Assembly (NCBI GenBank): GCA_001028815.1
Contig: LDJB01000003.1
Coordinates: forward strand, 314,143-378,142
Length of the DNA: 64,000 nucleotides
DNA from: Peptococcaceae bacterium 1109
GTDB taxonomy: Bacteria > Bacillota > Limnochordia > Darwinibacteriales > Darwinibacteriaceae
Direction of reading: 5' to 3'
A program made the position numbers and the translations under genes. Each line of letters starts with the position of its first letter. Positions within the stretch are counted from its first letter, which is position 1. Below, one piece after another: positions 45,717 through 47,987 of the stretch. The notes beneath the pieces were generated by a model that made no database searches, was not told the origin of the DNA, and was given only the letters and a program-made list of their open reading frames with translations.

Positions 45717-47186
45717 ATGACAGTCCAAAACAAAGTCCAGCTCATTACCTATCCTGACTCTCTAGGCGGGGATCTCCGCACACTTAACCAGGTGCTTGAC
45801 CGGCACTTTCAGGATATCTTCCCAGGGGGCGTACACATACTGCCCCCCTACCCCTCATCAGGAGACAGGGGCTTTGCCCCCTTGACCTATCTGGAGATTG
45901 AACCTGCCTTTGGAAGTTGGGAGGATATTAAGGCCATTGGGGAAAGGTTCCCAGTGCTCTTGGACGTGATGGTAAACCACATCTCTCAGCAATCCCACTA
46001 CTTCCAAGACTTCTTGGCAAGAGGCAAGGATTCGCCCTATGGGGAACTCTTCCTCACCCTGGATAAAATCTGGCCGGGTGGAGAGCCAGTGCAAGCCGAT
46101 GTGGACAAGATCTTCCTCCGCCGGGGGCAACCCTATTCCACGTTCAAGATCAAGGCAACGGGGGAAGAAATCAAGGTGTGGACCACCTTCGGAAAACAGG
46201 ATCCGTCGGAGCAGATCGACCTGGACATTAACTCGCCGAAAACCAAGGAGCTCCTCGCGGACATCCTCAAAAACTTCAGCAAGCACAATGTGAAGCTGGT
46301 GCGGCTGGATGCAGTGGGTTATGTGGTGAAAAAACTGGGGACCAGCTGCTTCTTTGTGGAGCCGGAGATCTACGAGTTCCTGGATTGGTTTGAGTCCCTG
46401 GCCCGCTCCTACGGGCTGGAGATCCTTCCAGAGATCCACGCCCACTACTCTATCCAGTACGCCTTAGCCCGCAGAGGCTATTGGATCTACGACTTCATCC
46501 TCCCCTACACTATTTTGGAGGCCATGATCGCCAAATCCAGCGCCAGGCTGCGGGCGTATCTCAAGGACAGGCCTGGGAAGCAGTTTACCATGCTGGACTG
46601 CCACGATGGCATCCCCGTACTGCCCGATGTGGAGGGACTGATAGATACCACAACTGCCCGTGAAGTGGTGGACACCTGCCTGGACAGGGGAGCTAATCTA
46701 AGCAAGATTATCTCCGACGCCCACAAAGGCGAGGGTGGGTTTGATGTGCACCAGATAAACTGCACCTTCTATTCCGCCTTAGGGGAACAGGACGATGCCT
46801 ACCTTGCAGCCCGGGCGTTGCAGCTCTTTGTCCCAGGGATACCCCAGGTCTACTATGTGGGCTTGCTCGCGGGAGCAAACGATTTTGCAGCTGTGGAGGA
46901 GACAGGCGATGGCCGAGCTGTGAACCGCCACAACTACACCGTGGGGGAAATCCAGGAGGCACTCAACAGGGAAGTTGTACAGCGCCTTCTAAAGCTCATC
47001 CGCTTCCGGAATGAACACCCAGCCTTTGGCGGAGACTGCAGTGTAGAGGAGAGCAGTGACACGGAGGTTCGCCTAGCCTGGAAAAACGGGGAGCAGTACT
47101 GCCGCCTCACTGTTGACTTATCCACCTACGGGGCTGTTGTTGAATACAGTGCAGAAGGCCAAACAGTAAAGCGCTTTACCGTGTAG
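45717..47186 (+). CDS. GH13_18 phosphorylase (sucrose or sucrose-6-phosphate phosphorylase-like)
   Basis: 489 residues, cytoplasmic. The nucleophile aspartate is in VRLDAVGYVVKK (near residue 198), the acid/base glutamate in LPEIHAHY (near residue 239), and the third acid in LDCHDGIP. GTSCFFVEPEIYEFLDW and the AGANDFAAVEETGDGRAVNRH loop are typical of GH13 subfamily 18. These enzymes use phosphate to split sucrose, sucrose 6-phosphate, glucosylglycerate or glucosylglycerol, giving glucose 1-phosphate. A fructokinase gene nearby (49496-50488) favours a fructose-containing substrate. The acceptor loop does not decide between them by eye. Confidence 0.87.
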   Translation: MTVQNKVQLITYPDSLGGDLRTLNQVLDRHFQDIFPGGVHILPPYPSSGDRGFAPLTYLEIEPAFGSWEDIKAIGERFPVLLDVMVNHISQQSHYFQDFLARGKDSPYGELFLTLDKIWPGGEPVQADVDKIFLRRGQPYSTFKIKATGEEIKVWTTFGKQDPSEQIDLDINSPKTKELLADILKNFSKHNVKLVRLDAVGYVVKKLGTSCFFVEPEIYEFLDWFESLARSYGLEILPEIHAHYSIQYALARRGYWIYDFILPYTILEAMIAKSSARLRAYLKDRPGKQFTMLDCHDGIPVLPDVEGLIDTTTAREVVDTCLDRGANLSKIISDAHKGEGGFDVHQINCTFYSALGEQDDAYLAARALQLFVPGIPQVYYVGLLAGANDFAAVEETGDGRAVNRHNYTVGEIQEALNREVVQRLLKLIRFRNEHPAFGGDCSVEESSDTEVRLAWKNGEQYCRLTVDLSTYGAVVEYSAEGQTVKRFTV

Positions 47187-47558
47187 AGCACCATCCTGCC
47201 TGGGCAAATATAGAATTCTATTCTAAATTGTTGACACTGTCGGCTTTTTGTGGTAACGTATAGTCAAAGGGCGCGCCTACTGACTGCAGTTGCAGTTTGT
47301 TTGACTTTCGTCATTGTTGACGAACGGGTGTTGCGCGCCTAAAAACTGCGGCGTCTTGTGCACAGCTGGCGCAAGCCTTCAATTAAATTAAATACTATTA
47401 ATTTCTTCTCTGGCACGGACCGCCGTCCCAGGTTTGCCCCCCTTTATGGGGGCGCCTTCGTCTTTCCGAAGCACATGCGTAGGCCCATCTAGAAGTCACT
47501 ACTTCTAGATGGGCCGCTGCCGTTCCAAGAACACTATGATTTAAAGGAGGAATATGGC
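47187..47558 (+). promoter_or_regulatory. Hairpin-rich gene-free region, candidate structured leader or non-coding RNA
   Basis: These 372 bp contain no credible gene. TTGACA (47231-47236) is followed after 17 bp by an extended TGG-TAACGT -10-like element. After it come nested helices: GGCGCGC (47270-47276) with GCGCGCC (47333-47339) encloses ACTGC/GCAGT (47283-47296) and TTCGTCA/TGACGAA (47307-47324), a three-way junction. Further helices are CTTGTGC/GCGCAAG (47355-47375) and GCCCCC/GGGGGC around 47436-47453. The 15-bp stem at 47482-47515 follows. No known riboswitch is recognised. Confidence 0.45.
47482..47515. promoter_or_regulatory. Perfect 15-bp inverted repeat upstream of the small unknown gene
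   Basis: GGCCCATCTAGAAGT pairs with ACTTCTAGATGGGCC across a CACT loop, without mismatch and with no T-run after it. It ends 43 bp before the ATG of 47559-47987 and could be an operator, an RNA stem or the last helix of the structured leader. Confidence 0.6.
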
Positions 47559-47987
47559 ATGAAACTGTTGCTTGGCTCGTGGGAGACTCGAAATGTGACG
47601 GTTAACCTGTACAAGACTGCCCAGTGGGTCCGCCTTGAGAGGGCCCGAGGGAATAAGACCAAAGGCTTGAGCATGCCCCGGGACCGCTTCATCCATCTCG
47701 CCGCGGCTGTTTTCGAGACTGTGAAGGACCAGCCAAGTACCCTCCTCATTGGCCCCTTGCCCGCTGTCATGGTTGATGGCGGGGACAGAACTATTTCCGT
47801 CACTTGGGAGCCGTACAACTTCGGCAGGTGCAACGCCCTCATCATCCGGAAGGGCAGCGGCAGATCCATCGCGGTGGAGCAGAGTGATGCCATGCCGTTC
47901 TCCTGGTGGCTCATGAAACACGCTCTTCTCCTTGCAGCCGATTTAATGGATGAACTGAGCGAAGCGGCACAGGATGCCTCCTGCTGA
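47559..47987 (+). CDS. Small protein of unknown function (weak PC4-like pattern)
   Basis: 142 residues with a good ribosome site (AAAGGAGG, 9 nt before the ATG). The N-terminal half is strand-rich (LLLGSWETRNVTVNLYK, WVRLERA), and GLSMPRDRFIHLAAAVFETV looks like a strand-turn-helix. This order faintly recalls PC4/YdbC single-stranded-DNA-binding proteins, but I could not confirm it. The C-terminal half is unfamiliar and ends in a helix rich in Ala and Leu. It follows a structured leader. Function unknown. Confidence 0.7.
   Translation: MKLLLGSWETRNVTVNLYKTAQWVRLERARGNKTKGLSMPRDRFIHLAAAVFETVKDQPSTLLIGPLPAVMVDGGDRTISVTWEPYNFGRCNALIIRKGSGRSIAVEQSDAMPFSWWLMKHALLLAADLMDELSEAAQDASC

What the first reader, a model, noticed from the sequence alone, without database searches (positions are those of the whole stretch)
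47187..47558. Candidate unknown structured RNA upstream of a small unknown gene
The 372-bp non-coding stretch has a promoter-like element and then at least six helices, including a closed three-way junction (GGCGCGC...GCGCGCC holding two hairpins) and a perfect 15-bp stem. I recognise none of the common riboswitch or leader classes. This is the best candidate for a previously undescribed element in the window.
Basis: partly seen in the sequence, partly recalled or inferred. Interest (0 to 1): 0.7.

Follow-up and report, generated by a model that had tools for sequence, protein, structure and literature searches.

The report
Structured RNA leader before PUR-like gene
Just before a small gene for a protein shaped like the nucleic-acid-binding PUR proteins, this uncultured bacterium carries a folded RNA leader of about 250 bases that no RNA database knows; it is conserved in its closest relative and probably lets the protein control its own production.

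Summary
Window 47187-47558 is non-coding, has a promoter-like TTGACA, and folds far better than shuffled sequence. It matches no Rfam family and has no other copy in its genome. The next gene (47559-47987), which matches no Pfam family, is modelled with high confidence as a two-repeat beta4-alpha-beta4-alpha protein; its best solved match is human PURA repeats I-II (E 1.9e-4, TM 0.66). Close homologues occur in four other genomes of the family. Three (G001, G006, G016) have the same layout: TTGACA promoter, 290-320 nt leader, terminal hairpin, gene; the hairpin ends 43-47 nt before the ATG in all four. In G001 the whole leader aligns, and the shared structure is far more stable than column-shuffled controls (0/300). 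In G006/G016 homology rests on position and layout, not sequence. Best reading: an undescribed structured 5' leader/attenuator for autoregulation by a PUR-like protein, as Borrelia BpuR represses its own mRNA. An sRNA-protein partnership is the main rival. Transcription, termination and protein binding are all inferred.

The parts
47231..47259 (+). Putative promoter: TTGACA (47231-47236), 17-nt spacer, weak -10 TAACGT (47254-47259); start of RNA expected near 47266
   Evidence: Sequence; the -10 matches only 3/6 and the pattern scan did not list it; same layout with good -10 boxes in G001 and G016
47266..47515 (+). Structured leader RNA, predicted start to end of terminal hairpin (250 nt)
   Evidence: z -6.70; aligns end to end with G001; no Rfam match
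47269..47340 (+). 5' domain: helix P1 (47269-47276/47333-47340) closing a junction with hairpins 47282-47297 and 47307-47324
   Evidence: conserved consensus structure with G001 (1/300 column shuffles as stable); G016 has a 9-bp P1 of different sequence at the same place; only about 20% in the full-length ensemble of the window sequence
47355..47375 (+). Helix CTTGTGC/GCGCAAG, 7 bp
   Evidence: only partly kept in G001
47435..47454 (+). C-rich hairpin TGCCCCC/GGGGGCG
   Evidence: sequence kept in G001
47482..47515 (+). Terminal hairpin, 15 perfect bp, 4-nt loop, ends 43 nt before the start codon
   Evidence: hairpins of 13, 8 and 13 bp end 47, 44 and 43 nt before the ATG in G001, G006, G016
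47543..47550 (+). Ribosome-binding site AAAGGAGG of the downstream gene
   Evidence: Sequence
47559..47987 (+). Gene for a 142-aa PUR-like protein, two beta4-alpha repeats
   Evidence: AlphaFold2 pLDDT 93.3, pTM 0.86; Foldseek best hit human PURA repeats I-II 8cht; homologues

Best explanation
The stretch is the 5' leader of the downstream gene: a promoter at 47231-47259 makes an RNA of about 250 nt that folds into a 5' junction domain, internal hairpins and a strong terminal hairpin placed 43 nt before the start codon. The hairpin acts as an attenuator (a terminator in relatives that have a U-tract; here more likely a processing or pausing stem). The PUR-like protein made from the read-through message binds the leader and adjusts its own read-through or translation. 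Shown: conserved position, conserved fold energy with G001, predicted protein fold. Inferred: transcription, attenuation, binding and the direction of control.
For: The leader layout lies upstream of the close-homologue gene in four genomes (G000, G001, G006, G016), and by DNA or model search no further copy was found in the class or family. The hairpin-to-ATG gap is 43-47 nt in all four, which leaves little room for a separate promoter. Terminator-like sites are called at the hairpin in G006 and G016. Consensus structure with G001 is -57.9 against -25.7 +/- 4.4 kcal/mol for column shuffles, 0/300. The protein resembles PURA and Drosophila Pur-alpha and, more weakly, Whirly and MRP1/MRP2. Precedent: Borrelia BpuR binds its own mRNA and represses its own translation (PMC9112904), prefers RNA (PMC3764826) and remodels a terminator (PMC13285594). 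Five distant homologues also have a short, strongly conserved leader.
Against: Double changes in the conserved structure are no more than chance (11 against 8.1; 54/300). G006's leader does not fold better than shuffles (z -0.01) and has no convincing P1. The window's hairpin has no U-tract. G017 has a close homologue with no such leader, and distant homologues have short ones, so the RNA is not needed for the protein family. No transcript data.
Confidence: 0.5

Rival explanations
1. The RNA is an abundant small RNA in its own right, ending at the terminal hairpin, and the PUR-like protein, made by read-through, is its dedicated partner (an RNA-protein pair acting in trans).
For: Terminator-like sites between RNA and gene in G006 and G016; 250-320 nt is long for a simple attenuator; a junction at the very 5' end would suit a stable RNA; RNA and gene stay together although they lie on different sides of the MATE gene in G000 and G001.
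Against: No transcript data; sequence diverges quickly (G016 and G006 leaders find no relative by BLAST); G017 keeps the protein without the RNA.
Confidence: 0.28
2. A toxin-antitoxin-like or defence cassette laid out like type III systems (promoter, antitoxin RNA, terminator, protein).
For: Same order of parts; patchy distribution (close homologues in 5 of 23 family genomes); the protein evolves faster than its neighbours (43% between G000 and G001 against 71-73%).
Against: No tandem antitoxin repeats; no PADLOC, PHROG or Pfam match; predicted fold is a nucleic-acid-binding fold; G016 and G017 genes share neighbours, so descent is at least partly vertical.
Confidence: 0.08
3. A small-molecule riboswitch that controls the PUR-like gene.
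For: Leader with terminal hairpin; P1 of the window sequence is predicted to form early and then give way to other pairings.
Against: No Rfam riboswitch match; no strongly conserved core across the four leaders; the switch-like behaviour is not kept in G001 or G016.
Confidence: 0.06
4. GC-rich intergenic sequence with hairpins and no specific function beyond a 5' UTR.
For: Covariation not above chance; G006 folds no better than shuffles; the minus strand folds equally well.
Against: Conserved fold with G001 (0/300), the 5' part alone 2/300, P1 domain 1/300; constant hairpin-to-ATG gap in four genomes.
Confidence: 0.08

Closest known systems
Borrelia burgdorferi BpuR and its own mRNA (autoregulating PUR-domain protein)
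   Same: Small bacterial PUR-fold protein; BpuR binds RNA and represses its own translation (PMC9112904) and can remodel a terminator (PMC13285594)
   Different: BpuR is one PUR repeat of 122 aa that homodimerises (PMC3764826); here one 142-aa chain is predicted to hold two repeats, and the leader is long and structured; binding is untested
PURA / Pur-alpha repeats I-II (metazoan)
   Same: Best structural match, beta4-alpha-beta4-alpha, TM about 0.65
   Different: 12-15% identity; no Pfam match
Transcription attenuators and autoregulatory leaders of RNA-binding-protein genes
   Same: Promoter, structured leader, terminal hairpin, gene
   Different: No match to any Rfam family; antiterminator and ligand not identified
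Type III toxin-antitoxin loci (ToxIN)
   Same: Promoter, RNA, terminator, protein gene in one unit
   Different: No antitoxin repeats, no toxin homology

Membership tests
Any Rfam 15 RNA family | Score above the family's gathering cut-off | tested here: not met
   No hit in the window; permissive search of 47180-47600 gives only an unrelated snoRNA at E 3.3; homologous loci also negative
PUR/Whirly-like fold (protein) | beta4-alpha repeat fold | tested here: met
   Model pLDDT 93.3, strands and helices in that order; the seven PDB hits below E 1e-3 are all PURA or Pur-alpha
PUR proteins | Recognisable by sequence: match to a curated Pfam model | tested here: not met
   No member of the protein family matches a Pfam model convincingly; no PDB chain by sequence profile
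PUR proteins | Binds purine-rich single-stranded DNA/RNA | not testable with these tools
   Needs a binding assay
Autoregulatory structured leader / attenuator | Leader lies on the gene's own transcript | tested here: inconclusive
   Only 43-47 nt between hairpin and ATG in four genomes, no promoter pattern reported there; no transcript data
Autoregulatory structured leader / attenuator | Intrinsic terminator before the gene | tested here: inconclusive
   Called in G006 and G016; T-run 7 nt after the hairpin in G001; absent in the window
Autoregulatory structured leader / attenuator | Conserved secondary structure with compensatory changes | tested here: inconclusive
   Conserved energy significant (0/300) but double changes 11 against 8.1 expected, 54/300
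Type III toxin-antitoxin | Tandem repeats in the RNA | tested here: not met
   Only one 17-nt pair of direct repeats at 62 nt spacing
Type III toxin-antitoxin | Toxin of the ToxN/AbiQ kind | tested here: not met
   No PADLOC or Pfam match; PUR-like fold

The most novel reading that the evidence does not exclude
A dedicated RNA-protein pair: a structured small RNA that assembles with a single-chain, two-repeat bacterial PUR protein and acts in trans, a class of bacterial RNA-protein complex not yet described.
Probability: 0.12. Interest if true: 0.75.

Novelty: new member of a known kind. Interest (0 to 1): 0.42.

Why it matters
It pairs an undescribed structured leader with a bacterial protein family of PUR-like fold that sequence libraries miss. 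If confirmed, it would show that PUR-type autoregulation, known from Borrelia BpuR, also exists in uncultured Bacillota with a dedicated RNA element, and would give a small single-chain two-repeat PUR protein with a candidate natural RNA ligand.

Tried and rejected
Known RNA: rejected by Rfam at both thresholds. tRNA/tmRNA: none in the window. Mobile repeat: one full copy in the genome. Protein-coding: frames of the G000 and G001 leaders read by eye show stops and no shared peptide. Further copies: DNA searches with the G000, G016 and G006 leaders over 61-73 genomes found only the G000-G001 pair; a covariance model from the pair found only those two in the family, its G020 hit (18 bits, positions 95-128) being one short hairpin that was not pursued. 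The best non-self match of that model in 62 kb of homologous loci is the G016 terminal hairpin, right place and strand, but only E 0.11. MAFFT does not align P1 of G016 or G006 with the others, so covariation over four sequences could not be counted. The 11 double changes looked strong in the first counts but vanish against re-folded column shuffles. Weak extra small-gene matches in G006 and G022 and G008, looked at, are out of frame with or inside other genes as far as could be seen. Viral contigs gave no relative of the protein.

Full report
What is there. Window 47187-47558 lies between a GH13-like gene (45717-47186, Pfam alpha-amylase) and a 142-codon gene (47559-47987), both on the + strand. 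It folds well (z -4.64, 0/100 shuffles). From the predicted start to the end of the terminal hairpin z is -6.70, and without that hairpin -3.25. No Rfam family matches, there is no tRNA or tmRNA, and no second full copy in the 2.7-Mb genome.

The neighbour gene. It matches no Pfam, NCBIfam, PHROG or PADLOC model convincingly. Close homologues are in four other genomes of the same family (G001, G017, G006, G016; 38-48% identity) and distant ones in the order and class. A search of 398 genomes of the phylum with an alignment that includes them found none outside the order (16 genomes of the class were in that sample). AlphaFold2 on five sequences gives a confident beta4-alpha-beta4-alpha model. 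Foldseek puts human PURA repeats I-II first (E 1.9e-4, TM 0.66), then Drosophila Pur-alpha; Whirly and MRP1/MRP2 proteins follow with low TM-scores near 0.35.

Is the RNA conserved? In G001 (same genus) the leader aligns end to end, and a covariance model built from the pair finds just these two full-length in the family. The RNAalifold consensus is -57.9 kcal/mol against -25.7 +/- 4.4 for column shuffles (0/300). The 5' part alone is reached by 2/300 and the P1 domain by 1/300. The count of compensatory changes is not above that null (11 against 8.1, 54/300), so covariation is not demonstrated; the control that shuffled only partners was too lenient because the structure had been chosen on the same alignment. 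In G016 and G006 sequence alignment is unreliable. What they share is layout: TTGACA promoter, a leader of about 310 and 290 nt, a hairpin of 13 or 8 bp, then the gene. The hairpin-to-ATG gap is 43, 47, 44 and 43 nt in G000, G001, G006, G016. G016 has a 9-bp helix of wholly different sequence where P1 would be (16/1000 shuffles reach it; 27 and 29 per 1000 for G000 and G001; G006 229/1000). In G000 P1 dominates the first 80 nt but drops to about 20% in the full-length leader, whereas it stays near 1 in G001 and G016.

Context. In G000 the gene and leader lie beyond the MATE gene; in G001 they lie between PfkB and a methyltransferase-MATE pair, so leader and gene keep together through a local rearrangement. 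G016 and G017 genes share a downstream neighbour (53%) and a nearby WD40 lipoprotein-like gene (67%), which argues for descent plus frequent loss rather than a free cassette. G017 lacks the leader; its gene overlaps a Nif11-like reading frame. Between G000 and G001 the protein is 43% identical while PfkB, MATE and the transaldolase-like neighbour are 71-73%.

Mechanism. The short gap between hairpin and start codon leaves little room for another promoter, so the leader is most likely part of the gene's transcript. A nucleic-acid-binding fold behind a structured leader points to autoregulation. The closest tested case is BpuR: it binds its own mRNA and represses its own translation (PMC9112904), prefers RNA (K_D 13 nM, PMC3764826), and shows modest antitermination in E. 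coli and terminator remodelling in vitro (PMC13285594). Whether this protein does the same is inference. The main rival is a small RNA with a dedicated protein partner.

Verdict. Real, structured, undescribed and narrowly distributed; likely a leader of a known general kind in front of a new PUR-like protein family. Membership in the PUR family is by predicted fold only.

Noticed in passing
L064, L066, L067, L068, L080, upstream of the small gene: Five distant homologues share a short conserved leader (CCAGCTAGAACAGGGA ... GGAGGTGTACCGCTGCGT ... GAGAGGAG) with a second Shine-Dalgarno-like GGAGG followed by a short frame starting GTG (GTA in L067) just before the gene.
   Followed up: partly
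L053:4769-5440 (-): In G017 the small gene overlaps a short Nif11-like reading frame, with another Nif11-like peptide frame further upstream; recognised by eye, not by a family search.
   Followed up: no
L055:2626-4821 and L053:1468-3657: 731- and 729-aa lipoprotein-like proteins, 67% identical (the L055 one matches WD40 models), near the small gene in G016 and G017; the gene just downstream of the small gene is also shared, 53%.
   Followed up: partly
47210-47221: Palindrome ATAGAATTCTAT just upstream of the -35 box; a GAATTC also lies upstream of the promoter in G001. Possible operator, or chance.
   Followed up: no
window 47271-47287 and 47333-47349: 17-nt direct repeat (82%), in part because both arms of P1 are near-palindromic (GGCGCGCC); the G016 P1 (GGTACC) is palindromic too, so arms could also pair between molecules.
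   Followed up: no
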